From: a virus
Direction: 5' to 3' (one strand)
Virus record (IMG/VR): IMGVR_UViG_3300013108_000478
Span: 1-30,543 of that record
DNA: 30,543 nucleotides
The notes beneath the pieces are model-generated. The model was not told where the DNA came from. It was given only the letters and a program-made list of their open reading frames with translations, and did no database searches. The position numbers and the translations under genes were made by a program. This document shows, in pieces, positions 2,604 through 29,513 of this stretch (positions are counted from its first letter, which is position 1; every line of letters starts with the position of its first letter).

Positions 2604-2604
2604 A

Positions 2605-3268: not shown

Positions 3269-3270
3269 AA

Positions 3271-3486: not shown

Positions 3487-3487
3487 T

Positions 3488-4401: not shown

Positions 4402-4436
4402 TTTAAAGTACTTATAGGATTAAATGTAACCGTGAA

Positions 4437-4562: not shown

Positions 4563-4585
4563 TGTATTTTACCATAAATATACAA

Positions 4586-5173: not shown

Positions 5174-5174
5174 G

Positions 5175-7981: not shown

Positions 7982-8791
7982 TTAAAATGATGCATTCATT
8001 GGTTCAGTAAACAACCATCCAACATGATTTGCTTGATCTAAACTGAAATGCAATTTATTCATTTCACCACCTCTACGGTTCTTACTAAACCATACAGCTC
8101 TACTACCTTCAGGAGTAAATTTAATATGAGCCATTGCAGTAATCATATGTTTAAATCTATTACTACCAGCAAACTCACCACCTTTAGTAACCTGTTGAAT
8201 GATCATAAAATTAGTATTTCTTTTTTCTTGGTTTTCACCTTTATTATGCTTCTCAAATAAATTCAACAATTGAGTTTCTGCATTTTTCATAGTACCACCA
8301 TGAAAATCTACTATTGCAACTGCAAGCTCAGCAAATGAATCTACTAAAACTGAATCAAATCCTTCACTAAGAATAGCTTTTAATATTACTAATGGATCTC
8401 TTTCAATCCAATCACCCATAAACAAAATTGGCAATTGACCGAATTTAGGGAATCTTTTAACCATTCCAACCATATCAATCTGATTCATCTCACCAGAAAT
8501 AAACAATACTTTATTACCATTTTTTTTCATATTAGCAAGCATATCTAGTAATATAGTAGTTTTACCAACACCTGGATCTCCAACAAAAGCAACATTAGTA
8601 CCTTTCATCATTCCACCTTCACTTGAAAGCAAAGCATCGATTTTAGTACCAGTTTTCATTGGAACGAACAATTGTGGATCAAATTTAAATGAATCCATTG
8701 TCATTGTTGTTGGTTTGAATCTTTTTGAAACTGTCGATCCTACAAATTGTTTTTTACTTGGACGACCTCTTTTAATTTTAATATTTGACAT
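7982..8791 (-). CDS. RadA/RecA-superfamily ATPase
   Basis: A 269-residue RecA-fold ATPase. Walker A is GDPGVGKTT at 71-79, LFISGEMN (96-103) follows, Walker B is SVLVDS at 147-152, and K237-N-R-R-G-G resembles the KNRFG element of RadA/Sms. FAGSNRFKHM (207-216) is a likely loop 2 or sensor. RadA-type proteins drive branch migration in recombination; in T4 the RecA-fold members are UvsX and the gp41 helicase. This one is shorter than UvsX, and lacks the RadA zinc finger and Lon-like domain. The N-terminal tail (KIKRGRPSKK) is AT-hook-like and basic. It is the first gene after promoter cassette B. Candidate role: phage recombinase or recombination helicase. Confidence 0.8.
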   Translation of the reverse strand: MSNIKIKRGRPSKKQFVGSTVSKRFKPTTMTMDSFKFDPQLFVPMKTGTKIDALLSSEGGMMKGTNVAFVGDPGVGKTTILLDMLANMKKNGNKVLFISGEMNQIDMVGMVKRFPKFGQLPILFMGDWIERDPLVILKAILSEGFDSVLVDSFAELAVAIVDFHGGTMKNAETQLLNLFEKHNKGENQEKRNTNFMIIQQVTKGGEFAGSNRFKHMITAMAHIKFTPEGSRAVWFSKNRRGGEMNKLHFSLDQANHVGWLFTEPMNASF

Positions 8792-8873
8792 AACCTTTAT
8801 TATTAATTATTATTCTTATTTACGTTGTAAATATACGAACCCTCTCCCGGGTAACCAAATTTTTCCGCGGGAA
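8789..8873 (-). repeat. Repeated intergenic hairpin-promoter-leader cassette, copy B
   Basis: Near-identical counterpart of the cassette at 3409-3486. Minus-strand order: hairpin TTCC-CGC-GGAA (8863-8873) just after the stop of the 45-codon gene, then AAATTTGGTTACCCG, then GAGAGGGTTCGTATATTTAC, then a leader ending ATAAAGGTTATG at the RadA-like start. Compared with copy A, the hairpin keeps its pairing while its second base pair differs, and the leader carries a short AATAATTAA-type insertion. The genes on both sides are unrelated between the copies, so the cassette itself has been duplicated or conserved. Confidence 0.75.
8828..8858 (-). promoter_or_regulatory. Bacteroidetes-type promoter driving the RadA-ligase genes
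   Basis: On the minus strand TTG (8858-8856) and TATATTTA (8835-8828) are separated by 20 bases, exactly as in copy A. The spacer holds ACCC-GGGAGA-GGGT, an inverted repeat that again could bind a regulator. The RadA-like start codon lies 37 bases downstream of the -7 box. Likely transcribes the RadA-like, ligase and GIY-YIG-like genes. Confidence 0.6.
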
Positions 8874-8876
8874 TCT

Positions 8877-9014
8877 TTATTCACTTGAATAATGCCATTC
8901 CCAATCTTGGTCAGCAGAACATGCAATTTTATCATATTCTTCATTATACTCTTCAATAGTTACCCATTTATCGATTTCACTATCGTAAATCATTCCATCT
9001 ATAATTTTAGTCAT
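8877..9014 (-). CDS. Small acidic hypothetical protein
   Basis: A 45-codon ORF beginning MTKIIDGMIYDSEIDKWVTI and ending WEWHYSSE. It is acidic and rich in Asp, Glu, Tyr and Trp. A GTATATTGGAC box at 9037-9045 upstream resembles the -7 element of other promoters here, so it may be transcribed from its own promoter. The gene is followed by the cassette B hairpin. Function unknown; support rests on the open frame, promoter and terminator-like flanks. Confidence 0.55.
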   Translation of the reverse strand: MTKIIDGMIYDSEIDKWVTIEEYNEEYDKIACSADQDWEWHYSSE

Positions 9015-9064
9015 ATATTATTTTTTTTAATTTTGTCCAATATACAACCTTTTTTCTGCGTATC

Positions 9065-9406
9065 CTAGTTTTTTTGCATAAGTGTTATTACTTCTTTTTC
9101 AACAAAGCCTTGTTTTTTAAAGAAATCTAATGTAGTAGGTTTACAATAGGCAATTAATTTATAACCATTTAAATGAGTATTTATATAATTCATTCTAGTT
9201 TCAAATAACATTTTATAAACACCTTTACCTCTATAATCAGGATGAACATATGAATCTTCTAATTTTAAAGTATTATCTGGTAGAAAAGTCATATTACACC
9301 AGCCTATTTCTTTACTAGCCGTAACTGCTACCCAACCACAAGACGGATGTCTTGAAGGATCAGGAGTATTAGTCGGCAGTCTAAAACCAATAATTTGGAT
9401 GTCCAT
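9065..9406 (-). CDS. GNAT-family N-acetyltransferase
   Basis: A 113-residue protein with the GNAT core. The acetyl-CoA pyrophosphate loop is V54-H-P-D-Y-R-G-K-G (motif A, RGKG 59-62), followed by a helix (YKMLFETRMNYI) and the C-terminal LDFFKKQGF (93-101), a typical motif B element. GNAT enzymes move an acetyl group from acetyl-CoA to an amine on a protein, sugar or small molecule. The protein is short but covers the main fold. The substrate is unknown; its place next to the sugar island makes an amino-sugar acceptor conceivable. The start lies next to an ATAGGG-N6-CCCTAT inverted repeat. Confidence 0.8.
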   Translation of the reverse strand: MDIQIIGFRLPTNTPDPSRHPSCGWVAVTASKEIGWCNMTFLPDNTLKLEDSYVHPDYRGKGVYKMLFETRMNYINTHLNGYKLIAYCKPTTLDFFKKQGFVEKEVITLMQKN

Positions 9407-9410
9407 AAAA

Positions 9411-9428
9411 ATAGGGGTTATACCCTAT
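9411..9428. promoter_or_regulatory. Inverted repeat between TATATTTAT box and GNAT start
   Basis: ATAGGG-GTTATA-CCCTAT is an inverted repeat with 6-base arms and a 6-base spacer. On the minus strand it directly follows a TATATTTAT promoter-like box (about 9425-9433) and ends 5 bases before the GNAT start codon. Its placement at the expected transcription start would suit an operator or a short 5' hairpin. No binding protein can be named. Confidence 0.4.
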
Positions 9429-9461
9429 AAATATATAAGGAGATATAATAAGTTATGACTA

Positions 9462-10310
9462 TTATATGACAGCTCGCCCTTTCATGTTTTCCCAATCACG
9501 ATTTTGTCTAACTTGCTCATTCTTAGTATTAGTGGAAATTAACATAGTTGGGTGTACACAAAACTCTTCAGCTACTTTAATTAATGCTTTAACATCTTTA
9601 GGAAAACAATGACCACCATAACCAAAATCACCATCTGGACCTGGTACTGCCCAATGTGATTTACCTAAACGTTCATCATAACAAGCATATTCAATTACTT
9701 TATCATAATCAACACCTAGCCCTTCACATATCTGATACATTTCATTTGCAAATGATACTTTAGTAGCTAAGAAGCTATTAGTAATATATTTAACCATTTC
9801 AGCATAAGTTGAATCTGTTTTAATAATAGATGCTTTGGGAAATACTTTAGCAAATAATGGTTTTAATGTAGTAGTTATACTTCTAGGACCACCTAATAAA
9901 ATTCTAGTTTGGTTTTCATAATCTTTAACAGCATTAGCTTCAGTTAAAAATTCAGGATTAAATACAATATTTAATTTTTCAAATTGGTTATTCCATTTTT
10001 GAGTTGTACCTGGTGGTATAGTTGATTTAACAATAACTGTTTTGACTACAACATTAGATTCAGCTGATTCAAATTTACATTTTTCATTTAAATCTCTTAA
10101 TTCTGCTTCTACTATACCAAGATGACAACTACCATCTTCACTCATTGGTGTAGGTAAACAAACAAATATAGTATCACACTTATAAAATATTTCTTCACTT
10201 GTAGAGTTACATAATCGTGCTTGTAAATCGTAAGTTAATACTTCATAATAATTTTTAAATTTTTGATAAACAGCGTTACCAACAAAACCTTGTCCTATTA
10301 TTCCTATCAT
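9462..10310 (-). CDS. Short UDP-glucose/GDP-mannose 6-dehydrogenase family enzyme
   Basis: A 282-residue protein from the ATG at 10310, which overlaps the epimerase stop (ATGA); the in-frame TTG at 10316 is less likely. The N-terminal Rossmann motif is IGIIGQGFVG, followed by FVCLPTPMSEDGS, VKSTIPPGTT and FNPEFLTEANAV, all hallmarks of nucleotide-sugar 6-dehydrogenases. The central helix has MVKYITNSFLATKVSFANE, and the catalytic Cys235 sits in GYGGHCFPKD. These enzymes oxidise UDP-glucose to UDP-glucuronate or related sugars with two NAD. Typical members are 390-450 residues; here only about 47 residues follow the catalytic Cys, so most of the C-terminal UDP-binding domain is missing. It is the last gene of the sugar island. 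Confidence 0.88.
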   Translation of the reverse strand: MIGIIGQGFVGNAVYQKFKNYYEVLTYDLQARLCNSTSEEIFYKCDTIFVCLPTPMSEDGSCHLGIVEAELRDLNEKCKFESAESNVVVKTVIVKSTIPPGTTQKWNNQFEKLNIVFNPEFLTEANAVKDYENQTRILLGGPRSITTTLKPLFAKVFPKASIIKTDSTYAEMVKYITNSFLATKVSFANEMYQICEGLGVDYDKVIEYACYDERLGKSHWAVPGPDGDFGYGGHCFPKDVKALIKVAEEFCVHPTMLISTNTKNEQVRQNRDWENMKGRAVI

Positions 10311-11302
10311 TTCCAAAAACTATAAATTCCTTTATCTAATTCATAACTAGGCCATACAAATCTATCTCTCATAGGTTGTTCTTTAGCCCAATTCCACATT
10401 TCACCTAAACCAGCTTTTAATGATGTTTTATGTTCAAAACCTAATATATCAATTGATTTCTGATATGTTGGTATTGAATGTTTAACTTCATGCCTTGCTT
10501 CTTTAAATACTGTTTCACCACCTCCAATTACTGTTTGAAGTATTTGATTAGCATGTAATATAGAATGTTCAGCTATACCTCCTAAGTTAATAATTTGTTT
10601 ACTAGCTTCATCTCTTACAGCTGCATTCCAAAGTGGTTCTAATGAATCATCTATATAACTAAATGCTCTTGTTTGTTTTCCATCTCCAAATATAGTCATT
10701 GGTTGACCATTTAAATGTTGGAACATCCAAATACCAAGTACATTTCTGTATTTATCCCAAATATTTTGTTTAATACCATAAACATTATGAGGTCTAATTA
10801 TACAATAATCTAATCCATGTTGTTCAGCTGCAATTTGAATATCCATTTCACAAGCATACTTTGCAACTCCATATGGATCAATTGGTGCTTGTTGTTGATC
10901 TTCATCAAAAACTCCACCATAGCCATGACCATACACAGCTAATGTAGACGTAAAAACCAATCTTTTAACGTCATGCTTTATACATTCATTAACTAATCGG
11001 GCTGTTGCCTTTAAATTGTTATCATAATTGTAAGCACGTATAAAAGGCGATAATCCTTCAGCAGCATAAGCAGCAAAATGATATACGTAGTCAATTTTAT
11101 GTGCTTCAAATATATTTTCAATTGGATGATTAACTAAATCCATTTGCCAAAATTTGACTTTAGGATGAATATTTTCTTTAAAACCACCACTTAAATCATC
11201 AACTCCAATTACATCATACTCTGGTTTGTTTTCTATGATCCAATCAGCTAATCTACTACCTAGTAGACCTGCTACACCTGTTATTAATATATTTTTACTC
11301 AT
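10307..11302 (-). CDS. NAD-dependent nucleotide-sugar epimerase/dehydratase (extended SDR)
   Basis: A 331-residue extended short-chain dehydrogenase/reductase. NAD binding is shown by TGVAGLLGSRL (GxxGxxG, 8-18) and VDDLSGG (34-40). The active site has Thr/Ser in VFTSTLAVYG (116-125) and Y144-G-V-A-K148. ICI-type substrate motifs include IIRPHNVYG. The family interconverts nucleotide sugars (for example UDP-glucose 4-epimerase or UDP-glucuronate 4-epimerase). Next to a UDP-sugar dehydrogenase it may act on UDP-glucuronate, but the substrate is not read from sequence. It overlaps the upstream glycosyltransferase by 8 bases and the dehydrogenase by 4. Confidence 0.88.
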   Translation of the reverse strand: MSKNILITGVAGLLGSRLADWIIENKPEYDVIGVDDLSGGFKENIHPKVKFWQMDLVNHPIENIFEAHKIDYVYHFAAYAAEGLSPFIRAYNYDNNLKATARLVNECIKHDVKRLVFTSTLAVYGHGYGGVFDEDQQQAPIDPYGVAKYACEMDIQIAAEQHGLDYCIIRPHNVYGIKQNIWDKYRNVLGIWMFQHLNGQPMTIFGDGKQTRAFSYIDDSLEPLWNAAVRDEASKQIINLGGIAEHSILHANQILQTVIGGGETVFKEARHEVKHSIPTYQKSIDILGFEHKTSLKAGLGEMWNWAKEQPMRDRFVWPSYELDKGIYSFWK

Positions 11303-12092
11303 ATTTTATACCTTTTACTATTTTACCATCTTTAGGATTGTGAGATAAATTATTATACAAAGATGGTGCTATTCCCCATTTATACATAAATAATTGAGCC
11401 GCCGGTCCTTCTGTAGCCCTAAACATTTCACCTTCTTTCCCATTCTTTGTAGCTGAACTACCAAAATGGTATAGGTGCGCTTCGTGTGTTCTAGTAAAGC
11501 CGATACCGTTTAGATCTAATTTCAGAAAGAAATCCCAATCGCATATAAAAGGTGATTGGTACATCACATCAAATCCTCCTACTATCATATAATCTTTTTT
11601 ATACATAGCAAAGGGGAATATACCACCATTTAATGTTAATTTATCTTGTTTTATTGACTCTGCATATTTAATAAACCCTTTATAATCAAATTCTTTAGGG
11701 TTACGTCCAAAGTCTTTTACTGGAAAATCAAATATACCTGGACCTGTTGGTTCAATTTGATTTAATGTTAATACACTATTTTTATTTAATGATTTTTCTA
11801 TTACTGTATCCCATCCTTTACAAAATACATTATCATCGTTTAGTATAAATATAATTTCATTTGAAGCGTTTATAACACCTAAATTAAGTGCTTGCTGCAT
11901 ACCTTGATTATGACCTAAATCTAATACTGAAATATGCTTTTTATATTTTTCTAATACTTCTTTACTTTCATCATAAAAACCATCTACTGCAACTATAATT
12001 TCATTATCATTATCTTGTTGATCAATAGCTGATTGTAAACAAATATCTAAATAATCTGGATTTCTATAAGTTGGGATAATTACACTAATCAT
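11295..12092 (-). CDS. Glycosyltransferase family 2
   Basis: A 265-residue GT-A fold enzyme. The start ISVIIPTYRNPDYL and the strand EIIVAVDG (31-38) are typical GT2 elements, and the metal-binding DxD equivalent is N85-D86-D87-N88 in IFILNDDNVF. Further motifs are the acceptor-side GGFDVMYQSPFICDWDF (aspartate as base) and a C-terminal YHFGSSAT. It transfers a sugar from a nucleotide donor to an unknown acceptor, most likely in the cytoplasm. Overlaps the genes on both sides by 4-8 bases, inside the sugar island. Confidence 0.88.
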   Translation of the reverse strand: MISVIIPTYRNPDYLDICLQSAIDQQDNDNEIIVAVDGFYDESKEVLEKYKKHISVLDLGHNQGMQQALNLGVINASNEIIFILNDDNVFCKGWDTVIEKSLNKNSVLTLNQIEPTGPGIFDFPVKDFGRNPKEFDYKGFIKYAESIKQDKLTLNGGIFPFAMYKKDYMIVGGFDVMYQSPFICDWDFFLKLDLNGIGFTRTHEAHLYHFGSSATKNGKEGEMFRATEGPAAQLFMYKWGIAPSLYNNLSHNPKDGKIVKGIKYE

Positions 12093-12799
12093 ATTTTACT
12101 CCAATCTGTTAAAGGTGATAACCAAGCTGTTTCTCCATGTGTAGCATAACCTGGTATCGGTGTTATTAATAGTTCATTATTTTCTCTTAATTCCAAAAAC
12201 ATTTGAAAGTCATTTGGGTGAACACCTGATGTATGCTTTCTAAGTATTGATTCACACCTTTTTAATGTACTGACCTTAGCTGCAAATGTCATTGTTGTAC
12301 TGTTTGTTATCTTCCAATGTACTGAATCTGTTTTATATACCCTAGTATTTTCAGCTCCTCCTTCACAATATGGATTACCACCTTCATTTGGTGAAATATA
12401 TTTGTCTGGGTGATCATATAATGAGACAAATGATGCTCCTAATGTAAATCCTTCTCGTAATATTTTATAGCTACCAGGTTTATGTAAATAGTCATTTTCT
12501 AAAAAATATATAATATCATCATCTTGATAATATAAAGCTTCATCTAAAGCTATATTAAATGTTTTAGCACCATTACCTACTTGTCTATAATCAATACTTG
12601 ATCTAGTAACATATTTTTGAATCATATCATTAGTTTCTTGACTAATGTTATCAGCTATAATAGTAAAATCAGCTGAAATAGGAGTACCATCTTTACCTGC
12701 AAATGTATTGACAGCATTTGCTAAACATGCTTCATTATTAATATAATCTGGTTTTACTTTATTATAACCAGCATCCGAAATTCGATACATTATTTTCAT
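12089..12799 (-). CDS. Glycosyltransferase-like protein
   Basis: A 236-residue protein whose DDDIIYFLENDYLHKPGS region (93-110) resembles the metal-binding segment of GT-A glycosyltransferases (E101-N-D103-Y in place of DxD). It is preceded by a strand-helix pattern with FTIIADNIS (45-53) and a Gly-Asn-Gly-Ala loop (75-78) as in nucleotide-sugar folds. The C-terminal half contains conserved-looking HPNDFQMFLE and YATHGETAWLSP. It lies between two glycosyltransferases with 4-base overlaps at both ends, which supports a sugar-transfer role. I do not recognise a CAZy family, so the call is moderate. Confidence 0.65.
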   Translation of the reverse strand: MKIMYRISDAGYNKVKPDYINNEACLANAVNTFAGKDGTPISADFTIIADNISQETNDMIQKYVTRSSIDYRQVGNGAKTFNIALDEALYYQDDDIIYFLENDYLHKPGSYKILREGFTLGASFVSLYDHPDKYISPNEGGNPYCEGGAENTRVYKTDSVHWKITNSTTMTFAAKVSTLKRCESILRKHTSGVHPNDFQMFLELRENNELLITPIPGYATHGETAWLSPLTDWSKI

Positions 12800-13422
12800 T
12801 GTAATGTACTATAATAATTGTTTTGTTTTTCTTGTCTTTTTATATCTTTAGGATGATATAAGCAATATTCTTCTTTAGCTGGTAATGTTGAGTAATGGCT
12901 AAATCCTTCTAATACTTCATGTACTTTATTTTTCCAATTAATGTCAGGTACATTTTTCCAAATACGCCATTGATAATCAGGGAAATTAACATGACCTTTT
13001 TCATCAACTCTCCAACCCCATTTTACTATATGATCTTGAGTTAAACCTTCTACTGTATTAATTCTAGGTACTAATACAACTTCAATCTTTTCGTTTGATT
13101 CTAATATTGCAGGTAATTGATTTATTAAATTTTCATTTGGTATTTCATCTGCATCAATTTGAAATATATAATCACCAGAACACATTTCTGTTAGTTGGTT
13201 TTTCCAATCAGCAAAATGATTTTTAAATGTAGCTGCTTTATATACTACATTTTTTTCATCTTTAAGTTCAATAATACGATTCCATACTTCAGCCGTACCA
13301 TTTCCTTTATCAAATAAAATTACAACTTCATCTTCTTTTCTTCTAAACTTTAAAAGAATATTTAATAATTTAGTAACTTCATCTAATTCGTTACAAACAG
13401 TAATTGCATAACTTATTTTCAT
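12796..13422 (-). CDS. Glycosyltransferase family 2 (WaaE-like)
   Basis: A 208-residue GT-A enzyme. Elements: ISYAITVCNELDEV at the start, VVILFDKGNGTAEVW, NHFADWKNQL (69-77, like the F-x-x-R/K-N element of WaaE/KdtX-type enzymes), and the metal motif IFQIDADE with D90-A-D92-E93. The C-terminal part has WRIWKN and the HEVLEG box typical of this subgroup. WaaE-type enzymes add glucose or heptose to lipopolysaccharide core; here the acceptor is unknown. Overlaps the following gene by 4 bases; 2 bases separate it from the gene upstream. Confidence 0.88.
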   Translation of the reverse strand: MKISYAITVCNELDEVTKLLNILLKFRRKEDEVVILFDKGNGTAEVWNRIIELKDEKNVVYKAATFKNHFADWKNQLTEMCSGDYIFQIDADEIPNENLINQLPAILESNEKIEVVLVPRINTVEGLTQDHIVKWGWRVDEKGHVNFPDYQWRIWKNVPDINWKNKVHEVLEGFSHYSTLPAKEEYCLYHPKDIKRQEKQNNYYSTLQ

Positions 13423-13424
13423 AT

Positions 13425-13874
13425 CTATTCTGGTAATAATCCAATATACGATAAAGCATCCATATAATCACGTTCTTTAAAGTGTTTTAATGTTTGCATA
13501 TCAGGTTTATATTCTGTTAATGTTCCATCTTTATTTTCCATTGGCTTATCTAATTTAACAGCTTTAACAGCAGCCCAAGCCCAATCTCCATCTCCATTTC
13601 CATCAGCATAAACCATTCCACTTTCAGGTATATTAATCATATTAGGTAACCATGTTAACCCAGTTTCAACATCTGTCCAAGCTAAATCTTTATACAATTC
13701 AGGTAATACTTCCCATTGTTCTGTATAAAAAGGTTGATCAGGTGTCATTAAACTATTAGTCCAAAAACCACAAGATATACTATAGTAATTAGTTATCTCA
13801 GGTGTTACTTCTATTCTATAACATAAATCACCACCTGATTTAGGGCAATTTATTATTTCATCATATTGTTCCAT
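13425..13874 (-). CDS. Conserved-looking hypothetical protein in sugar island
   Basis: A 149-residue acidic protein rich in Trp, Tyr and Pro, with Cys at 10, 18 and 35. Notable segments are YYSISCGFWTNS (30-41), WEVLPELYKDLAW (54-66) and DGNGDGDWAWAAVK (91-104). The last segment has a DxNxDxDW spacing that could bind metal but may simply be a turn. No membrane segment or catalytic motif is evident. It is wedged between glycosyltransferases (1-base overlap upstream, 2 bases downstream), so a role tied to glycan or its acceptor is plausible but unproven. Confidence 0.75.
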   Translation of the reverse strand: MEQYDEIINCPKSGGDLCYRIEVTPEITNYYSISCGFWTNSLMTPDQPFYTEQWEVLPELYKDLAWTDVETGLTWLPNMINIPESGMVYADGNGDGDWAWAAVKAVKLDKPMENKDGTLTEYKPDMQTLKHFKERDYMDALSYIGLLPE

Positions 13875-15175
13875 TAAATTTTCTTTAAATTAGGAGTTGA
13901 CAATGACGGAGTATCCATTGAAGGTAAATTCAATTTTAATTCCGTAGCAAATTCAGGTAAATTATCACTTAAAATTTTACCAACTAATTCTTTCATTTTA
14001 TCAAAACTAAATTCTGTCTTAATATAATGTCCTTGCTGTTTAGCAGGTCCAAGATATTTTTTATAATTGGTAAATACATTTTTCATTGCATCTTTAGCCT
14101 GTTTAGGATTAACTTGGAACCATTGGTATTCTTTTTTAATCCATTGATTAGCAGCACTTGGATGTACTTGTTCTAATTGTCCACCTAATACAATAGATAA
14201 TCCTGGTTCAATAAAATCCATATGACCAGACCAACCTGATACAATTAATGGTTTTTTAGATAAACAAAATTCTTGTAATGGTCTACCAAACCCTTCACCT
14301 TTAGTTAAACTAATCATAGCTTTTACTTTTTGGTGATTATATAATTCATTTACTTGTTGATCTGTAAGCCCTCCGTTTAATACATAAACATTAGGTAAAT
14401 CATCATTTTTATATTGCTTTTTAATTTTAGTAATTTTATTTACAATAGCTTCTCTACTCATATAGCTATTTCTACCAGTAGATGCTTTTAATATTAAAGC
14501 TGGTCTTTGTTTTTTATTCTTAAATGTTTGGAAGAAATAATCAACCATTAAACCTACATTTTTTCTATCATGACCCATATCACCTTGCATCCAATGTCCT
14601 ACAAACAAATAACAAAATGTTTCTTTAATAGCACTTAAATCTAAACTTACTTCACTATTTGGTAAATACTTGTATACATCTAAATTAGCACCTTCAAATA
14701 CAACTTCAATTGGCTTCTGTGTTTTTAGAACATGACCTGTAGTTCTACCTTGTTGGTCTCTTTGTTCAAAACCAATTTCAGAGAATACTTTTTTACTGTG
14801 TTTTGAAGAAACCCAATTCATATCCATTCTATTTAAACCTTCAACCCAAGTATGATCACAACCTGTACTTTCAATACCAGCTGTACAGCCAATATTATAT
14901 TTTCCTATAGGTTGAAATTCACTTGGAATAGTAATTTGCATCCAAATATCTGGTTTTTGTCCTTGAGCTACACCTTGAACTCTATGTTCATCTAAAAATT
15001 GCCAATCTTCATGATCTTTAGTAAATCCAAATGGTGTATTACCCCATCTTTGGCTTAATAATTTTACATCATATTTATCTAATTCAATAATTGCTTTAAC
15101 AATATCTCTAGATCTAGCCCCATATCCACTGTAGGTATCAAAAGGACAACTTATATAAAAACTTGGTTTTTTCAT
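13874..15175 (-). CDS. GT-B glycosyltransferase (GT4-like)
   Basis: A 433-residue GT-B fold protein. N-terminal domain: FYISCPFDTYSGYGARSRDI, the Gly-rich loop typical of GT4 enzymes. C-terminal donor domain: HDRKNVGLMVDYF (202-214), PALILKAST, and KGEGFGRPLQEFCL (292-305), the E-x7-E type nucleotide-sugar motif with EGFG, then KPLIVSGWSGHMDF. Retaining transfer of a hexose-type sugar from a nucleotide donor is expected. The tail (last 20 residues) is Ser, Thr, Pro and Leu-rich. It directly follows the other GT-B gene with no gap, so the two may act sequentially. Confidence 0.88.
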   Translation of the reverse strand: MKKPSFYISCPFDTYSGYGARSRDIVKAIIELDKYDVKLLSQRWGNTPFGFTKDHEDWQFLDEHRVQGVAQGQKPDIWMQITIPSEFQPIGKYNIGCTAGIESTGCDHTWVEGLNRMDMNWVSSKHSKKVFSEIGFEQRDQQGRTTGHVLKTQKPIEVVFEGANLDVYKYLPNSEVSLDLSAIKETFCYLFVGHWMQGDMGHDRKNVGLMVDYFFQTFKNKKQRPALILKASTGRNSYMSREAIVNKITKIKKQYKNDDLPNVYVLNGGLTDQQVNELYNHQKVKAMISLTKGEGFGRPLQEFCLSKKPLIVSGWSGHMDFIEPGLSIVLGGQLEQVHPSAANQWIKKEYQWFQVNPKQAKDAMKNVFTNYKKYLGPAKQQGHYIKTEFSFDKMKELVGKILSDNLPEFATELKLNLPSMDTPSLSTPNLKKI

Positions 15176-16627
15176 TTAATATATTAATTTATGATTTAAC
15201 ACTTTACTTTTGTCTTCAGTTGCATTTACTATTTCAAAATCTTCTCTTGGTTTCCAAACTTTGAATAATTCATCAAATGCTTCCAATACTCTTTGGCCTT
15301 GATGTTTAGCTGTGAATCCAGCTTCATCACTTATAGCCCATTCTCTACCTGCTAATCCTCTTTCATCACGTTCTTCTTTACTCATCTTGTATAATTCCAT
15401 ATACCTTTCAGCTGCATCTTCCCATCTACATCTATCATCATAGATATAAGGTGTTGGAGGTGATCCTTGAATTGATCTTGAAGTTGGATAAACTGGGAAT
15501 GCCCATTTACCATGCTTTTTATATGTACCTCTATGGTTAGAAGGTACTTCAGGTGTTGGTTCAAACCATTTACCTTCATCATCTACAAATCTCATTTGAT
15601 CTTGCATTCCACCTGTTACATTAGCAATAATAGGAGTACCTGCTAATATTGCTTCAGTAATGGTTAATCCCCAACCTTCGTTAGATGTTAATAATACTTG
15701 TGCATCTGCAATATTATATAAGTAATTTAAGTGTTTTCTATCTAATTTATTAATTGAGAACACACACGCTTTAGGATATTTTTCTTCAAACAAATATTCT
15801 CTTACTTGCTCTAGATCAGTACCATGATCAGTTACTACCTCTGTATGTAATATTAATCTACATCTATCAGCTTGTGTTCGTGGTAATTGATCTAAGAAAT
15901 GTCTAAACGCTAACATTGTATCTGGGATTTGTTTACGTCTAATATTTCTTGAATTAAAGAATAAACAAAAATCAACATCATCACCATTAAAAACACTATT
16001 TCTAAAGATTCTCATGTTTTTATAATCTTCATGATCTTTTCTAATAGGAAAGTAATGTTCATGATTTAAACCATGAGGAATGTATTTAAATACTCTATTA
16101 CTGTTATCACAATCAGCTAATACTAACTCATTAATGTTTTTAGTTTGTTTTGAAATACCCATTAATAAATCACAAGATTCATAAAATGCTTGATTATATC
16201 TTGGTGCTGGGTAATCATCCCAAATGTTAATATAAGCTATAGGACATTTTTTTCTAATATCATCTTCCATATTAAAGATGTGACCAAAATATCTTGGATC
16301 AGTGAATAACATTACAGCATCAGGTTGTTCAATATCTAATACTTGTCTAACTTCTTCTTCCTTTCCATAACCGCTAACACAGTATATTTTAACTTGAGCA
16401 TCATCAATTCCAATTTCTTTACCTGTAGCTTCTGATAGATCTACAACCTTTCCTTGATCAGGATGATTAATAGCTCCACCAATATTAACCCAGTTAAAAT
16501 GATGTGCTGTATGAACAACTATTTCTTTGGCTACTGTTGCTACACCAGAGTGTACTCTAATGTCATCACATACTAGAACAATTTTTTTCCTCTTATTAGG
16601 AGGAAGGTATTTAAAACTTTTATTCAT
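15176..16627 (-). CDS. GT-B glycosyltransferase (GT4-like)
   Basis: A 483-residue GT-B enzyme. The N-terminal domain has KIVLVCDDIRVHSGVATVA (15-33) and the C-terminal domain FFNSRNIRRKQIPDTMLAF (223-241), then VLLTSNEGWGLTITEAILAG (311-330), which is the donor-binding E-x7-E signature, and GTPIIANVTGGMQDQM. This is the first gene of the sugar island. It is preceded only by a 14-base gap after the ribbon-helix-helix gene, so that small DNA-binding protein may be co-transcribed with, or regulate, the sugar genes. Acceptor unknown. Confidence 0.9.
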   Translation of the reverse strand: MNKSFKYLPPNKRKKIVLVCDDIRVHSGVATVAKEIVVHTAHHFNWVNIGGAINHPDQGKVVDLSEATGKEIGIDDAQVKIYCVSGYGKEEEVRQVLDIEQPDAVMLFTDPRYFGHIFNMEDDIRKKCPIAYINIWDDYPAPRYNQAFYESCDLLMGISKQTKNINELVLADCDNSNRVFKYIPHGLNHEHYFPIRKDHEDYKNMRIFRNSVFNGDDVDFCLFFNSRNIRRKQIPDTMLAFRHFLDQLPRTQADRCRLILHTEVVTDHGTDLEQVREYLFEEKYPKACVFSINKLDRKHLNYLYNIADAQVLLTSNEGWGLTITEAILAGTPIIANVTGGMQDQMRFVDDEGKWFEPTPEVPSNHRGTYKKHGKWAFPVYPTSRSIQGSPPTPYIYDDRCRWEDAAERYMELYKMSKEERDERGLAGREWAISDEAGFTAKHQGQRVLEAFDELFKVWKPREDFEIVNATEDKSKVLNHKLIY

Positions 16628-23717: not shown

Positions 23718-23918
23718 TTAAACCATTTCTTCTACAATACCTACTAATTCACTAACTACAAGTATAACTGTAGCAGCAATTAGATTGATCGGGATAAAAA
23801 TATATCCAACAATACGTATTGCAGATTTTACAAACGAAACAATTTGGTGTTTCCTTTGATCTGGCATATTAGCCAAATTTTTTCTATCTTTTTCTATTGA
23901 GTTAAATTCTTTATTCAT
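23718..23918 (-). CDS. Small single-pass membrane protein
   Basis: A 66-residue protein with a charged N-terminal half (EKDRKNLANMPDQRKHQ) and one hydrophobic helix of about 25 residues near the C-terminus (IRIVGYIFIPINLIAATVIL). It probably sits in the host inner membrane with the N-terminus inside. It overlaps the sliding-clamp stop by 8 bases. No family recognised; a holin or antiholin role is conceivable but no better supported than other small-membrane-protein roles. Confidence 0.65.
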   Translation of the reverse strand: MNKEFNSIEKDRKNLANMPDQRKHQIVSFVKSAIRIVGYIFIPINLIAATVILVVSELVGIVEEMV

Positions 23919-24633
23919 TTCTTGCTATATAATAGACGCTTTCAATATCGTCTGAGTTAAACATTAATTTCATCATACCTTTTTTAGATAATTGTAATCT
24001 ACCTGTAGGCATGTCCTTATTTGAGTTTAAAATTGATTTGAAAATGTCTGAATCAAATGGTATTGATAGATCACTTTCACTAATTTCACCTCTTAATTGG
24101 TATGTAATTTTATTAGAAAATCCAGTATTATCACCAAATATAAATTCACATACTTTATTACCATCAAAATCCTCAGTTGTTGTAATTAGCATATTATTTA
24201 CATCACTTAATGCATTTTTAGCTTTAATTAAATGGTCAACATCTTCCATCTGTAATTCAACATCAATCTCCCACGTATCAGGATCTTCATACCATGTTGT
24301 TTTACCTAAAATTAAAATATCTGCTAGTGAATAAGTTAAATCAAAATTTAAATCAGCAATATGCATTTTAGTAAATACTGATTTTATTTTTTCTAATGTG
24401 ATGGATAAGTCTCCATTAGTAATAGAGATTAGTTTTGATAATTTATCTGTGTCAAATACACCTAATTCACCATCTTCTAAAGCAAAATCCTTTAGATGTA
24501 CTTTACATACTCTACCTTTTTCACCTGCATAAATTGTGAGGGCATTATCTTTAATTCTCCATTTAACCTGATTATTTAATCCATTTAAATAATACTTTGC
24601 TATAACACTTTGTAAAACATTTTTACTTATCAT
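23911..24633 (-). CDS. 45: Sliding clamp, T4 gp45-like
   Basis: A 240-residue protein, close to T4 gp45 (228). It reads as two repeats of the PCNA-type fold: LGVFDTDKLSKLISIT (57-72) is the typical first-domain element, and the second domain contains LQMEDVDHLIKAKNAL and FDSDIFKSILNSNKD, the helices that line the clamp hole. The clamp encircles DNA, gives the polymerase processivity and, in T4, also activates late transcription. Loaded by the gp44/gp62 complex encoded downstream. Overlaps the radical SAM gene by 4 bases. Confidence 0.88.
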   Translation of the reverse strand: MISKNVLQSVIAKYYLNGLNNQVKWRIKDNALTIYAGEKGRVCKVHLKDFALEDGELGVFDTDKLSKLISITNGDLSITLEKIKSVFTKMHIADLNFDLTYSLADILILGKTTWYEDPDTWEIDVELQMEDVDHLIKAKNALSDVNNMLITTTEDFDGNKVCEFIFGDNTGFSNKITYQLRGEISESDLSIPFDSDIFKSILNSNKDMPTGRLQLSKKGMMKLMFNSDDIESVYYIARNE

Positions 24634-25523
24634 ATAATAATATTTTTATTTCTAATTTTATCACTTGGACTAATACCATTTTCACATCTACCACACATAT
24701 CAAATGTTGATAAAGGTGCTGGCATTATATCATCATATTCGTCAACGAATAAATTACCTAATATTTTTTCTAAACTATAATCCATACAACATAATGAAAC
24801 ATCTCCATTAGGCAAAACAACATTATGATAAAGGTGTTCTATACAACCACAAGTACTAGGACCTTTTTTAGGTGCATGATTTACTCTATCTTTGATTTTA
24901 TCTAATGCTGGTTTAATTGCTGCTTCGCCTATTAAGTTACCTGCTCTATCCCAAAAATTAGGTATAACAGGATCAGGCCATAATTCTTTTACACAGTCAT
25001 GAGGTTCACCCATACTCATTACATAAAATGCTTGAATATCATTTTCATATTCTTTAAATTTTTCAAATACCTTATATAGTCTATCGCTTAAAGGATGTTC
25101 AGCTATTCGTTCAGCATCTGGGATGTGTAAACAAAACCCACCATTTGGTCCTTTAGTCCAAGGTATATCTTTAACTGCTTCAACATCATCTAAGGTCATA
25201 CCTACACCTGTTGAAAATGCTGATAATGGATGTCCTTTATAATGAGCATACTGCATCATTTTACTACACTCCTTATTTAACCAAGGTTCAGTAAAACCAG
25301 AAAATGTAACTCTAACTTCTTTAGGTAATTTATCACATATTTGAATAAACCTAGCTAATGTTAACATTTTAGGTTGCCCTTTATGAGCATGATAAATTTT
25401 TTCTAGTGTTCTTTGAGGACAAAAAGCACAATTAACTACACACCCTTTAGGTGAAATTGAAGTGGTAAATTCCATAGTTGGCCACTTTGTAGTTTTCCAA
25501 TAATCTCTTTTCTTAAAATCCAT
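24630..25523 (-). CDS. Radical SAM enzyme with SPASM-type C-terminus
   Basis: A 297-residue radical S-adenosylmethionine enzyme. C28-x3-C32-x2-C35 (GCVVNCAFC) binds the radical SAM 4Fe-4S cluster; TFSGFTEPWLN (about 93-103) is the GGE-type element. The C-terminal domain has C225-x-C227, C245-C246 (DVSLCCMDY) and C277-x2-C280 (MCGRCEN), the Cys spread of SPASM or twitch domains that hold an auxiliary Fe-S cluster; LPNGDVSLCC is typical. SPASM enzymes modify peptides, proteins, sugars or nucleosides. No partner precursor peptide was found. It has its own promoter and the -7 box is only 5 bases before the start codon, so the mRNA may be leaderless. Confidence 0.85.
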   Translation of the reverse strand: MDFKKRDYWKTTKWPTMEFTTSISPKGCVVNCAFCPQRTLEKIYHAHKGQPKMLTLARFIQICDKLPKEVRVTFSGFTEPWLNKECSKMMQYAHYKGHPLSAFSTGVGMTLDDVEAVKDIPWTKGPNGGFCLHIPDAERIAEHPLSDRLYKVFEKFKEYENDIQAFYVMSMGEPHDCVKELWPDPVIPNFWDRAGNLIGEAAIKPALDKIKDRVNHAPKKGPSTCGCIEHLYHNVVLPNGDVSLCCMDYSLEKILGNLFVDEYDDIMPAPLSTFDMCGRCENGISPSDKIRNKNIII

Positions 25524-25527
25524 ATCG

Positions 25528-25557
25528 TCAATATACGAAATAACTATTATACTTCAA
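25528..25557 (-). promoter_or_regulatory. Promoter of radical SAM - sliding clamp operon
   Basis: Minus strand: TTG (25557-25555, inside the 3' end of the polymerase C-part) and TATATTGA (25535-25528) are 19 bases apart, preceded by TTTCG as in the groES transcript promoter. The start codon at 25523 begins 5 bases after the box, so transcription would start at or within the first codon. This suggests a separately controlled, possibly leaderless transcript for the radical SAM enzyme and clamp. Confidence 0.55.
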
Positions 25558-26482
25558 AGGAAGATAATGCATCTAAATGTGGGTTTAAATCTAAACTCCA
25601 TTCTAAATCATTAAAAAATCCTTCTAATTTATTTAATAAAATTGATTCAAATACTTTTTGTCTATCAGCATATGAATCTAAAAATTGTTTAATTTTATCT
25701 GGCATGTCATAGTCAAAGAATGCTAAACCTTCTATTTTATAAGGATTATCTTTTAAATAAATCCATTTAACTTTATCAGCCATAGTAATTAAATTATGTT
25801 TTCTATCTAATTGCCATAATTTTAACAAATCATTATAACGAATAGCTGCCCTAACAGGTGCAGGAGCACCTTTTAATATTTCAGTAAACATTTCACCTGC
25901 TCTAGCTTTAGTACCTGTATACTTATCTAATTTCTTAACTGAAGTTGGATTACCTAACTTAGCTAAAGGGATGGATCCATCTAAAATTTGTTTTTTAAAT
26001 GATTTAATCTGGTTTAGAATGTTTTGTTTTTCTGCTCCTTTAAGTACTTGTTGTAAAATATCATTAAAGAAATCTCCTAAAATAGGTGGGAAATTTGCTT
26101 TCATAAACTCTAAACCTTTAATGTCTAGTGTTTCTTTTTCAATACCTTCTTGTTTTGTGATCCACTGTGCATAACGTCTAGTAGCCCTAAAATAAGCTGA
26201 TCTGATTACACATTCAGTTTTCATTTCAAGTCTATGAGTAGTAACATTAAAAGCTTCTTTAGCTAATCTATCATAATCCTCATTTATAATATCTTGATAA
26301 GCTAGAGCTACTTTTTCTAATTTATCATCTTTTTCTTTATCAGTAAATTCTTCAAAATTAGGATATAAATGTTTTAATATAGGTTCTGCGTTAAAGTAAT
26401 TAGAATCTGTATCAACATAAGCACAGTAATTCTCATCATCTTTATCACATATCCACCAAGGAGTATCTTCTATGTGTTTCAT
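25547..26482 (-). CDS. 43: DNA polymerase B C-terminal part (split gp43, motif C and thumb)
   Basis: A 311-residue protein that carries the missing C-terminal portion of a family B polymerase. Motif C is A-Y-V-D24-T25-D26-S27, supplying catalytic Asp residues. Downstream, ECVIRSAYFRATRRYAQW (90-107) and KKLDKYTG (183-190) are conserved polymerase-palm and thumb elements, with a helical thumb to the end. The end LDALSSFEV could be a clamp-binding tail. The ATG at 26482 overlaps the DUF6165 stop (ATGA). The first about 20 residues (KHIEDTPWWICDKDDENYC) lead straight into motif C, so no essential residue is lost at the break. It must pair with the product of 27109-28809. Confidence 0.9.
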   Translation of the reverse strand: MKHIEDTPWWICDKDDENYCAYVDTDSNYFNAEPILKHLYPNFEEFTDKEKDDKLEKVALAYQDIINEDYDRLAKEAFNVTTHRLEMKTECVIRSAYFRATRRYAQWITKQEGIEKETLDIKGLEFMKANFPPILGDFFNDILQQVLKGAEKQNILNQIKSFKKQILDGSIPLAKLGNPTSVKKLDKYTGTKARAGEMFTEILKGAPAPVRAAIRYNDLLKLWQLDRKHNLITMADKVKWIYLKDNPYKIEGLAFFDYDMPDKIKQFLDSYADRQKVFESILLNKLEGFFNDLEWSLDLNPHLDALSSFEV

Positions 26483-26847
26483 CTATATTCTTTTATATCT
26501 TTAAATTCAGAACCAGTAATAATATTAATATCATTTTTTAACTGGTTTCTAACTTCATTATATTCAAATATCAATCTAGATGAAGTAATGAAATCTTTAT
26601 CTTTAATTTTTTTATCTCTAACTCTGTTTTCCAGATCCCATAATATACGATTTACTTTTGATAATTCCAAAAATAACACCCTAACTTCTTTACCATTTTT
26701 AGTAAATAAATCTACAACACCTGGATTTAATGTTAAGAATTCCTTCTCAACATTAGCTAGGTTTTCAGGATCCTTCATATTCAATTTTTTGATTTCTAAA
26801 ATTGAAATTCTATCTAATAATTCGCCATTTGAAATTTCTATCTTCAT
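26479..26847 (-). CDS. DUF6165-family protein lodged between polymerase halves
   Basis: A 122-residue protein from the ATG at 26847, 1 base after the previous stop; an in-frame GTG at 26865 is possible but less likely. It matches the DUF6165 pattern: KIEISNGELLDRISILEIKK at the start, then LANVEKEFL, LSKVNRILWDLENRVRDK and FITSSRLIFEYNEVRNQLKN, ending EFKDIKEY. The family is all helical, unknown in function, and in bacteria is often near glycosyltransferases. Here it sits inside the split polymerase gene region and overlaps the C-part by 4 bases. No nuclease motif of the homing type is present. Confidence 0.8.
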   Translation of the reverse strand: MKIEISNGELLDRISILEIKKLNMKDPENLANVEKEFLTLNPGVVDLFTKNGKEVRVLFLELSKVNRILWDLENRVRDKKIKDKDFITSSRLIFEYNEVRNQLKNDINIITGSEFKDIKEYR

Positions 26848-26848
26848 A

Positions 26849-27112
26849 TTAAAATCTTGTATCACCAGGTATTTTTACAATTGGGCCTGGTTTTTCACCT
26901 TGTGAGTTTCTAATTGGACTATCTACTTCTATTTGAAATGTGACATTATTAATTTTAAACCTAAACACTCCTTGTTTTAGAAATTTTTTAAATGCTTTTT
27001 CTTGTTTTTCAGACCATAGTTCACTCATAATAATTAATTCTTCTTTACTTATAGGTTCACCATTTGCTGTTATATGCATATTGCTTCTAATGGATTGTTT
27101 TTTTAATGTCAT
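26849..27112 (-). CDS. Hypothetical protein between polymerase halves
   Basis: An 87-residue protein. MHITANGEPISKEEL (from Met12) begins a helical region with SELWSEKQEKAFKKFLKQGV, followed by FRFKINNVTFQIEVDSP (a strand pair) and PGPIVKIPGDTRF. An alternative start is Met12 at 27079. Its first ATG overlaps the polymerase N-part stop codon (ATGA), so ribosomes ending the N-part can continue into it. No nuclease or intein motif. Function unknown. Confidence 0.7.
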   Translation of the reverse strand: MTLKKQSIRSNMHITANGEPISKEELIIMSELWSEKQEKAFKKFLKQGVFRFKINNVTFQIEVDSPIRNSQGEKPGPIVKIPGDTRF

Positions 27113-28809
27113 ATATTTAATTTTAATTTGTTTTTAATTACTTTATTCATATGCCTATTAGCACATAAAGCTGATTCTTGGATAATTCTTTGACCTGATA
27201 AAGTAATAGCTTCTGATAAAATTACATTACCATATCTAAAACTACCTAATGCTGTTGCTCCATATAAACTATTAAGCAAAATTTTCATTGTATATTGCAT
27301 TAAATAGTTATATTCACCTTTTTCTGTGTCTCCAGCTTTGTAAGCTTTCTTCATACGTCCCTTATAAATAACACGCTCATCAAACCATTTTTTAAGAATT
27401 GTAGATAAAACTGATTCTCTATCTGTCTCAAAAAATACTCCATTAGCTGATATTGCTAGGTTATTTTGTTCAATCATTTGAATCAATTTTTTTACAGGAA
27501 CATAAGCTTGTTTACGGTGTTTATTTTCTACTAATAATTCTTCTTCAGGATCGCGTTCTTTTAAATCGTTAAGAGCCAATCTATTATTACGGTCATCTGC
27601 ATCTATGATACGACCCTTGAGTGTTTCTTTACCAATGTTAATTGACATAATTATAGATGGATACAGCGATGTTAAATCCTCATCAAACATATACTTGTAC
27701 AATCCAGCTTTAGGGCAAAATAAATAACCACCAGCATAATTCTTTTTATGAATTGGATTAGCATCTCTTCTAGGTGGAATTATATTTTGTGATAATAAAT
27801 AAGCTGAAATAGCACCATCTTGTGATACTGTATTGGCATAAACTTCACTATAATTATGTTTACCTTTGTGTGATAAATTTTTAGTTAAAGCAATATACTG
27901 TAGTTTTTCATCTAATTTTTGAAGTATTTCAACATCAACAAAGTTATATTGAATAAATTTAAGTATGTCAGTTTCAAATAATTGATCAAGATTACCTTCA
28001 TATTCAACTTTACCTATACCAGCATATTTCTCTCCAATAGCATTTAATTTCCAGCTTGGTTCATCTTTCCAACTATATTTTTTATGTAAACGCATATAAT
28101 CTAAAGATTCAACTCCCACAATTTCTACAAATTGATTACGTTTATACCAATATTGATTACCTTTTTTACAATTTACTTTACCAATTGGAGATAAATGTCT
28201 AGCAAAATCTTCACCTATTGTATTACACATTCTATAATACAAATAAGGAATATCAAAGAAATCACTATTATAACCAATTAAAATATCTGGATCTATGTCT
28301 CTAATAAATTCAATAAATTTACCTAATAACTCATTTTCAGTTCTACAAGGTATAATTTCTTTATTTTTAGCTTTAGTATGTTTTAATTGATTCTTTTTAT
28401 CAAGAATTAAAATATGCCAAGTATCAGGGGTTTTATCCCACCAAGCAATAGAAGTAATAGGCATAGGAGCACTTTCAATATAATCTTCAGTTAATGCTCC
28501 TCCAATTTCACACTCAATATCAAAAAATACTTCTCTATGTCCTGTAGAAGGTTCATCATTAACACCATACTTTTCAATTAAGAATTTCTGATATGGTTTC
28601 ATATCATGAAAATGTATATTTGAAGTATTTTTATCCCAAGTATAAGTTTTAGATAATTTTTCACCATTAATCCCAGTGAATTTACCATTTGGGTCTTCAA
28701 CATAAGCTGGGTTCCACCATTCTAATTCATCATAACCTGCTTCGTCCCAAAGATGTATTTTGAATTTATTTTTTCCTAAACTTGTAGCATAACATTTTTT
28801 ATAACTCAT
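27109..28809 (-). CDS. 43: DNA polymerase B N-terminal part (split gp43, exonuclease plus motifs A and B)
   Basis: A 566-residue protein with the 3'-5' exonuclease and the first half of the polymerase domain. Exo I: FFDIE (D97, E99); Exo II: GYNSDFFDIP (D186); Exo III: YNFVDV (D292). Motif A: D378-L-T-S-L-Y-P-S-I; motif B: K509-I-L-L-N-S-L-Y-G, followed by SEAITLSGQRIIQESAL. It then stops at residue 566, before motif C, so on its own it lacks the catalytic Asp pair. The complementing part is at 25547-26482. T4 gp43 is 898 residues; the two halves sum to 877. Split gp43 is known in some Aeromonas T4-like phages. Confidence 0.93.
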   Translation of the reverse strand: MSYKKCYATSLGKNKFKIHLWDEAGYDELEWWNPAYVEDPNGKFTGINGEKLSKTYTWDKNTSNIHFHDMKPYQKFLIEKYGVNDEPSTGHREVFFDIECEIGGALTEDYIESAPMPITSIAWWDKTPDTWHILILDKKNQLKHTKAKNKEIIPCRTENELLGKFIEFIRDIDPDILIGYNSDFFDIPYLYYRMCNTIGEDFARHLSPIGKVNCKKGNQYWYKRNQFVEIVGVESLDYMRLHKKYSWKDEPSWKLNAIGEKYAGIGKVEYEGNLDQLFETDILKFIQYNFVDVEILQKLDEKLQYIALTKNLSHKGKHNYSEVYANTVSQDGAISAYLLSQNIIPPRRDANPIHKKNYAGGYLFCPKAGLYKYMFDEDLTSLYPSIIMSINIGKETLKGRIIDADDRNNRLALNDLKERDPEEELLVENKHRKQAYVPVKKLIQMIEQNNLAISANGVFFETDRESVLSTILKKWFDERVIYKGRMKKAYKAGDTEKGEYNYLMQYTMKILLNSLYGATALGSFRYGNVILSEAITLSGQRIIQESALCANRHMNKVIKNKLKLNI

Positions 28810-28993
28810 CTGGTCGTATTGTTGATAATATTTCCATTAAATCTTCAACTTCAAACTTACATAGTTGCCCTTCACATAAATCTTGACAACATTTATCAGT
28901 ATTTAAATAAATGAATTCTAATTTTTCATCTATCTGTTTCCACTGTTCTTTAGATAATTGTTTCACTCTTATGAAATTTTTGTAATTCATCAT
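28799..28993 (-). CDS. Small Cys-rich hypothetical protein
   Basis: A 64-residue protein from the ATG at 28993 (a second ATG follows directly). It has a helix (LSKEQWKQIDEKLEFIYLN) and four Cys in KCCQDLCEGQLC (residues 34-45), which could bind a metal ion. It overlaps the MazG-like gene by 44 bases and the polymerase N-part by 11 bases. The larger overlap is unusual for this window, but there is no other open frame covering 28810-28949. Function unknown. Confidence 0.6.
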   Translation of the reverse strand: MMNYKNFIRVKQLSKEQWKQIDEKLEFIYLNTDKCCQDLCEGQLCKFEVEDLMEILSTIRPDEL

Positions 28994-29513
28994 TAGAGAA
29001 AAACTTGGTTAAATCAGGTCTAAAGTAATTAATACTTTTCATTACTTTTCTATCTCTGGTACGGTAGACAATATACCGTCCTTCCTCGATTTTCTCAAAA
29101 TGACAGGCCTCACCTTGTTCCTTACTTCTCTGGCTGACACTCTGTATGGCTTCTTCTTTAGTTTTACAAGCTTTCGACATATTGCTTGCTTGTACCTCTT
29201 GATATGCAGGCCATATCTTATCTTTAAGGCCGTGTAACATAACACCGTTCCCAAGGGAAACATAAGCAATGTCGCACAAAGCGTCCAAAACCTCCACAAT
29301 GTCTCCGTTTTCGCAAGCTTCTCTATATTCTTCGAGCTCTTCAAGTACGAAATCATATACGAATTGCCATTCTTTTTTCTCTGGGATAGTTGGTTCATAG
29401 TTATTTGGTTTGTTAAATGTTGCGTTAAACGTTTCCACTTCATTTACAAATGGTACATTACCATTTTCCTTTGAATTATAGACCTCAAAGTCTAGTTTTA
29501 ATTGATTACTCAT
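28950..29513 (-). CDS. MazG/HisE-like NTP pyrophosphohydrolase
   Basis: A 187-residue protein with the all-alpha NTP pyrophosphohydrolase core. LEELEEYREACENGD (57-71) carries the first acidic motif and EVLDALCDIAYVSLG (74-88) the second (E74, D77, D81), followed by NMSKACKTKEEA. Such enzymes hydrolyse nucleoside triphosphates or phosphoribosyl-ATP-like substrates to monophosphate and pyrophosphate; phage versions may tune nucleotide or alarmone pools. N-terminal VETFNATFNKPNNYEP (26-41) and the C-terminal TRDRKVMKSINYF tail extend it. Bases 29041-29340 have clearly higher GC (28 of 60 at 29101-29160) than neighbouring genes, suggesting a mosaic origin. Confidence 0.85.
   Translation of the reverse strand: MSNQLKLDFEVYNSKENGNVPFVNEVETFNATFNKPNNYEPTIPEKKEWQFVYDFVLEELEEYREACENGDIVEVLDALCDIAYVSLGNGVMLHGLKDKIWPAYQEVQASNMSKACKTKEEAIQSVSQRSKEQGEACHFEKIEEGRYIVYRTRDRKVMKSINYFRPDLTKFFSNDELQKFHKSETII

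What the first reader, a model, noticed from the sequence alone, without database searches (positions are those of the whole stretch)
25547..28809. DNA polymerase gp43 split between motifs B and C with two unrelated genes inserted
The N-part ends after motif B (KILLNSLYG) and the C-part begins 20 residues before motif C (YVDTDS). Both halves keep all expected catalytic motifs and sum to 877 residues, close to T4 gp43. Between them are an unknown 87-codon gene and a DUF6165 gene, with every junction a short overlap, so all four are translationally coupled. Split gp43 is known from Aeromonas T4-like phages, but I know of no split that houses a DUF6165 protein. Neither inserted gene has homing-endonuclease or intein motifs, so how the break arose is open.
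Basis: partly seen in the sequence, partly recalled or inferred. Interest (0 to 1): 0.78.

Follow-up and report, generated by a model that had tools for sequence, protein, structure and literature searches.

The report
Split phage polymerase hosting exchangeable genes
In a large group of uncultured marine T4-type phages the replicative DNA polymerase is made as two separate proteins, and the gap between its two genes has become a docking site where small, mostly sugar-metabolism genes are inserted, lost and swapped; this extends a rare, known arrangement in an unexpected way.

Summary
The minus strand encodes a T4-type PolB as two ORFs: 566 aa with exonuclease and motifs A and B, and 311 aa with motif C and thumb. 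An 87-codon gene (X) and a DUF6165 gene lie between them. It is no sequencing artefact: 175 distinct loci share the break point. Both halves are under strong purifying selection (dN/dS about 0.07), and none of 19 larger related contigs (up to 166 kb) has a second PolB. The break is derived: a sister clade with the same flanking genes has an intact ~890-aa PolB, and about 30 split relatives have the halves directly abutting (mostly ATGA), so the split probably preceded the insertions. In the other 145 loci the interval holds 0.2-5.2 kb of variable cargo: X in 137, DUF6165 in 79, then mostly sugar-nucleotide and group-transfer genes, with no recognised homing nuclease, intron or intein. X and DUF6165 are exchanged independently of the polymerase, and X has moved there from beside queC. 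The two chains most likely reassemble non-covalently into one polymerase, as in Aeromonas phages 44RR/25, but at a different, new break point. New variant of a known kind.

The parts
27109..28809 (-). PolB N-part (566 aa): N-terminal domain, 3'-5' exonuclease, palm motif A (DLTSLYPS), fingers and motif B (KILLNSLYG)
   Evidence: RB69 gp43 up to residue 609
26849..27112 (-). X: 87-aa single-copy phage gene (MTLKKQSIR... family) lying in the polymerase break
   Evidence: dN/dS 0.16
26479..26865 (-). DUF6165-family gene (128 aa from GTG, 122 aa from ATG at 26847)
   Evidence: present in 79 of 145 inserts
25547..26482 (-). PolB C-part (311 aa): new 21-residue leader MKHIEDTPWWICDKDDENYCA, motif C YVDTDS, rest of palm, thumb
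   Evidence: RB69 gp43 608-885
27109..27112 (-). ATGA stop/start overlap N-part / X
26479..26482 (-). ATGA stop/start overlap DUF6165 / C-part
28950..29513 (-). PRA-PH (MazG-like) gene, conserved upstream neighbour also in the intact-polymerase sister
23911..24633 (-). gp45-type sliding clamp, conserved downstream neighbour
   Evidence: named by similarity and position; not profile-tested

Best explanation
This is a two-subunit T4-type PolB. In the ancestor of this phage clade the polymerase gene was broken in the loop between the palm helix after motif B and the motif-C strand, giving two adjacent, translationally coupled cistrons (in the simplest form overlapping as ATGA). The two chains fold together non-covalently into one polymerase. 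The N chain carries the motif-A aspartate, fingers and exonuclease; the C chain carries the motif-C aspartates and thumb, so neither chain alone can be catalytic. Because the break left a stop/start junction inside an essential operon, genes could be added there without cost to the enzyme: a resident gene (X) moved in from beside queC, and host-type glycan genes such as DUF6165 followed. Recombination between phages in the conserved polymerase flanks keeps swapping this cargo. Shown here: shared break, intact sister, no-insert forms, purifying selection, cargo exchange, relocation of X. Inferred: co-translation, heterodimer assembly, glycan role of the cargo, recombination mechanism, and the order split first, insertion later.
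For: Halves match complementary parts of PHROG 262 and RB69 gp43 (the C-part AlphaFold model hits RB69 gp43, E 1e-8, TM 0.67). 175 distinct loci with the same break, the halves separated by -4 to +5214 bp. dN/dS 0.076 (N) and 0.072 (C). Motif B 173/175, motif C DTDS 173/175. Intact 893-aa ORF with the same neighbours (PRA-PH, PolB, clamp, HSP20) in L414; the tree puts the 75 split rows in one clade (SH-aLRT 100) with 8 unsplit rows as sister (99). Insert versus none needs at least 6-9 changes on the tree. Pairwise-distance correlations over 61 loci: N-C 0.84, N-clamp 0.87, N-X 0.27, N-DUF6165 0.29; identity steps at the N/X boundary. X is upstream of queC where the polymerase has no X insert, and inside the break (absent near queC) where it does. 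Precedent: split 43A/43B co-purify and have polymerase activity (PMC2988022).
Against: No experiment: neither protein nor transcript evidence. The window is a fragment and no complete genome was available, so an unlinked second polymerase is not strictly excluded. AlphaFold of the C-part alone is weak in parts (residues 91-120 below pLDDT 50), and the complex could not be modelled. X and cargo functions are unknown or by family name only. Whether the insert-free state is ancestral or a reversion is not settled: the deepest split branch in the tree (L077/L079/L081/L082) already carries X.
Confidence: 0.85

Rival explanations
1. The break is a scar of a lost homing endonuclease, intron or intein that once invaded the conserved motif-C region, as in fractured genes of other phages; the present genes came later. 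(This concerns the origin and is compatible with the best explanation of what the thing is now.)
For: Distant phages show such elements close by: L203 is broken exactly at YGDTDS by split-intein-like halves with a nuclease-like ORF between; LR756508 has intein-like segments at motifs B and C plus a split in the same loop. Homing nucleases favour essential genes (PMC2988022; PMC10448857).
Against: No nuclease family among the cargo profiles scanned, no intron by Rfam in nine loci of this clade including the window, nor in L163 and L203, no intein-like residues at either end, and the break lies about 20 residues from the intein site. 27 loci abut with no remnant. Absence now does not exclude a lost founder.
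Confidence: 0.3
2. X and/or DUF6165 are functional parts of the polymerase (bridging or regulatory subunits), which is why they sit between the halves.
For: X is in 137 of 145 inserts, directly coupled to the polymerase genes, single copy and under purifying selection.
Against: About 30 relatives lack them at the break; X and DUF6165 distances are nearly uncoupled from N and C (0.27-0.38) while N, C and clamp agree; X lives beside queC in relatives; DUF6165 relatives lie beside GT9-like heptosyltransferase genes in two Flavobacteriaceae genomes (by eye).
Confidence: 0.1
3. The interval is removed from RNA or protein (intron, trans-splicing, intein) or bypassed by frameshifting, so a single chain is made.
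For: The reading frame of motif regions is intact on both sides.
Against: Interval length is variable and of all three residues modulo 3 (52/40/83), the C frame is open only a median 9 nt upstream of its conserved ATG, 27 loci have bare stop/start overlaps, and Rfam finds no intron.
Confidence: 0.03
4. Sequencing or assembly artefact, or a decaying pseudogene.
For: Metagenomic contig; a few relatives (L043, L382) have extra frame breaks.
Against: 175 distinct loci, dN/dS about 0.07, motifs kept.
Confidence: 0.01

Closest known systems
Split gp43 (43A/43B) of Aeromonas phages 44RR2.8t and 25
   Same: T4-type PolB encoded by two adjacent cistrons; catalytic palm residues divided between chains; phage 25 carries an extra gene between the halves; split product reported to co-purify and be active (PMC2988022).
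   Different: 44RR break lies after residue 498, before motif B, with a short untranslated spacer; phage 25 has a homing endonuclease between the halves and an intron. Here the break is between motifs B and C, with coupled ORFs, glycan-type cargo and no nuclease.
Fractured phage genes with split inteins and free-standing endonucleases (known to the author as Dassa et al. 2009, not read here; example seen here: L203)
   Same: Essential phage replication gene in two ORFs with a gene between.
   Different: No intein halves, no endonuclease, break away from the intein site.
nrdA split by mobE (Aeh1) and T4 topoisomerase gene 39/60 split by mobA (PMC2988022)
   Same: Essential enzyme split into co-assembling chains around an insert.
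   Different: Those inserts are homing endonuclease genes; here the cargo is variable metabolic genes.
LR756508 (uncultured 484-kb phage)
   Same: PolB split in the same loop, with other genes between.
   Different: Carries intein-like segments; on the tree the split needs a separate origin (2 changes).

Membership tests
T4-type PolB (gp43, PHROG 262) | Exonuclease plus palm motifs A, B, C in order, alignable to RB69 gp43 | tested here: met
T4-type PolB (gp43, PHROG 262) | Located with clamp and replication genes | tested here: met
   clamp downstream of the C-part in 167 loci
T4-type PolB (gp43, PHROG 262) | DNA polymerase activity | not testable with these tools
   needs protein
Aeromonas-type split gp43 (43A/43B) | Two cistrons for one PolB | tested here: met
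Aeromonas-type split gp43 (43A/43B) | Same break point (before motif B) | tested here: not met
   alignment columns 675 (44RR) versus 821 (window)
Aeromonas-type split gp43 (43A/43B) | Untranslated intercistronic spacer, homing endonuclease or group I intron | tested here: not met
Aeromonas-type split gp43 (43A/43B) | Chains co-purify and are active | not testable with these tools
   needs protein
Fractured gene with split intein | Intein halves at the break | tested here: not met
   chain ends: N-part ends in a short basic tail, C-part starts MKHxExTPWWICD; no intein profile hit
Fractured gene with split intein | Endonuclease between the halves | tested here: not met
   cargo annotation
DUF6165 (PF19662) | Match over the Pfam gathering cut-off | tested here: met
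   39.3 versus 27 bits

The most novel reading that the evidence does not exclude
The split is adaptive: a conditional two-chain polymerase whose assembly can be regulated, with the new conserved leader of the C chain (TPWWICD) as docking surface and the relocated small protein X as assembly or regulatory factor, so that replication is gated by subunit association.
Probability: 0.08. Interest if true: 0.85.

Novelty: new variant of a known kind. Interest (0 to 1): 0.62.

Why it matters
It appears to be the first case (in the papers held here) of an essential replication gene whose break has become a hot spot for exchangeable metabolic cargo instead of a home for selfish nucleases. The full series survives in nature (intact, abutting split, split with one gene, split with up to 5 kb), so the evolution of a split enzyme and of a cargo site can be followed and tested. 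It also warns that polB surveys of marine phages can misread this group: each half alone looks like a fragment.

Tried and rejected
Assembly error, frameshift, intron, intein: tested and rejected. Functional clue for X: no Pfam, PHROG or PDB relative above noise and the fold search of its model was negative (model pLDDT 77, pTM 0.55). Promoter and terminator scan of the island: no excess over shuffles, so nothing is claimed about internal promoters. PDB search with the single C-part sequence found nothing; only the profile did. Literature: searches for gp43A/gp43B, split DNA polymerase, DUF6165 and flavobacterial T4-like split polymerase found no report of this arrangement; only open-licence papers were searched. 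Recalled Aeromonas details were checked against the records and a review.

Full report
Observation. The four ORFs are present as described. The N-part (27109-28809) and C-part (25547-26482) match complementary stretches of PHROG 262 (77-569 and 565-851 of 856). The C-part profile aligns to RB69 gp43 residues 608-885, and the N-part aligns up to residue 609. The break therefore falls in the loop between the palm helix after motif B and the motif-C strand. In intact relatives this loop is a few residues (NKQMGT-DKDYIITSDTDS); in the split form both new ends are longer (NKVIKNKLKLNI / MKHIEDTPWWICDKDDENYCAYVDTDS), about 20 extra residues in all. P8, C12 and N18 of the C-part leader are invariant in 60 diverse sequences, and H3, E5, T7, W9, I11, D13, D16 and A21 nearly so, so the leader is probably functional.

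The break is shared. Scans of IMG/VR with either half and further scans gave 175 distinct loci with both halves. The two genes keep the same order and are separated by -4 to +5214 bp. Both halves are under strong purifying selection (median dN/dS 0.076 and 0.072), and catalytic motifs are kept. In 19 larger related contigs, up to 166 kb, only these halves match PF00136 (in several only the N half reaches the threshold). This excludes artefact and pseudogene.

The break is derived. Contig G142 (L414) has an intact 893-aa PolB flanked by the same PRA-PH gene, clamp, HSP20 and GroES-like gene, with 39-48% identity to the N-part. In the tree the split loci form one clade (SH-aLRT 100), and eight unsplit rows including this one are its sister (99). 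Microcystis phage Mel-JY01 (848 aa) and other T4-like relatives are also unsplit. LR756508 is split in the same loop but needs a separate origin (2 changes).

What lies in the break. In about 30 loci nothing does: 25 have a 4-nt ATGA overlap, two a 1-nt overlap, three a short spacer. In 145 loci 0.2-5.2 kb is inserted. X is in 137, DUF6165 in 79, a mannose-6-phosphate-isomerase-like cupin in 30 and a cytidylyltransferase in 21. Then follow DegT aminotransferase, FkbM and other methyltransferases, formyltransferase, GNAT, epimerase, PIG-L, glycosyltransferase, PALP, Smr, SET, DUF2452 and tryptophan-halogenase-like genes; several clusters have no profile match (one, in 7 loci, looks like a sulfotransferase by eye only). 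None of the profiles hit is a homing nuclease, and Rfam finds no intron. In two of three Flavobacteriaceae genomes looked at, DUF6165 sits beside a gene that resembles GT9 heptosyltransferase by sequence (by eye), which fits a host-derived glycan role.

The cargo is exchanged. Over 61 loci with all genes, pairwise distances of N agree with those of C (rho 0.84) and the clamp (0.87), but hardly with X (0.27) or DUF6165 (0.29); bootstrap intervals do not overlap. The window's X is 95% identical to that of L241, whose N-part is about 64% identical, yet only 48-61% identical to X of loci whose N-part is 90-95% identical. Identity along the DNA steps at the N/X boundary. Insert presence changes at least 6-9 times on the tree.

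X moved. X is single copy where present in contigs of 30-166 kb. Where the polymerase has no X insert and the region is visible (L071, L354, G133), and in the unsplit G142, X is a 71-74-aa gene directly upstream of queC. In all loci with X in the break and the queC region visible, it is not there. So X relocated into the break, or back, several kilobases along the genome.

How it works. The most likely reading is one polymerase reassembled from two chains, as reported for Aeromonas split gp43 (co-purification and activity, PMC2988022), with the ATGA junctions giving coupled translation and comparable amounts. A stop/start junction in an essential operon is a place where whole genes can be added without harm, and conserved flanks allow homologous replacement of whatever lies between. 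Heterodimer assembly, coupling and recombination are inferred; the remaining points above are computed.

Comparison with what is known. The closest published system is the Aeromonas split gp43. It works alike (two cistrons, divided palm) but this is not that split: 44RR breaks before motif B and has a spacer, and phage 25 has a homing endonuclease and an intron; neither condition is met here. The split-intein fractured genes are excluded by the chain ends and the break position. I therefore file it as a new variant of the split-gp43 kind.

Host. Matching contigs were binned with Flavobacteriaceae MAGs (L397-L399), plus one unclassified bacterial MAG (L396); binning of phage contigs is weak evidence for the host.

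Limits. All contigs are fragments; no expression data; the order 'split first, insert later' is the simplest reading, but the deepest split branch already carries X. Literature coverage is open-licence only.

Noticed in passing
L163 (LR756508.1 257000-269500), ORFs 2364-5417 and 8423-10288: PolB of a 484-kb phage also split in the same loop, with intein-like segments at motif B and at motif C and several genes between the halves.
   Followed up: partly
L203 6001-10084: Huge-phage PolB broken exactly at YGDTDS by apparent split-intein halves, with a nuclease-like ORF (8142-9110) between them.
   Followed up: no
window 9462-16627: Run of glycan genes: UDP-glucose dehydrogenase, NAD epimerase and several glycosyltransferase-like ORFs; the phage carries much sugar metabolism beyond the break.
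   Followed up: partly
L071 1104-4032, L308, L316: X short form sits upstream of queC, followed by thioredoxin-like, queD-like and queE-like genes: 7-deazaguanine pathway, suggesting modified phage DNA (names by eye).
   Followed up: partly
window 28950-29513: The PRA-PH (MazG-like) gene upstream of the polymerase also has distances uncoupled from the polymerase (rho 0.26), and is 79% identical in the unsplit L414 whose clamp is only 34% identical: it is exchanged too.
   Followed up: partly
window 24630-25523: Radical SAM/SPASM gene between C-part and clamp; found there in only 12 of 167 loci, so the C-part/clamp junction is a second, less used insertion site.
   Followed up: partly
window 5342-5962: ORF with Cys pairs and an H-N-H-like pattern (LHFKDNN...LLCYNHY), perhaps an HNH endonuclease; no Pfam match.
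   Followed up: no
L043 9236-10169: C-part itself in two overlapping frames, while the sister contig L042 is intact: sequencing error or a further break.
   Followed up: no
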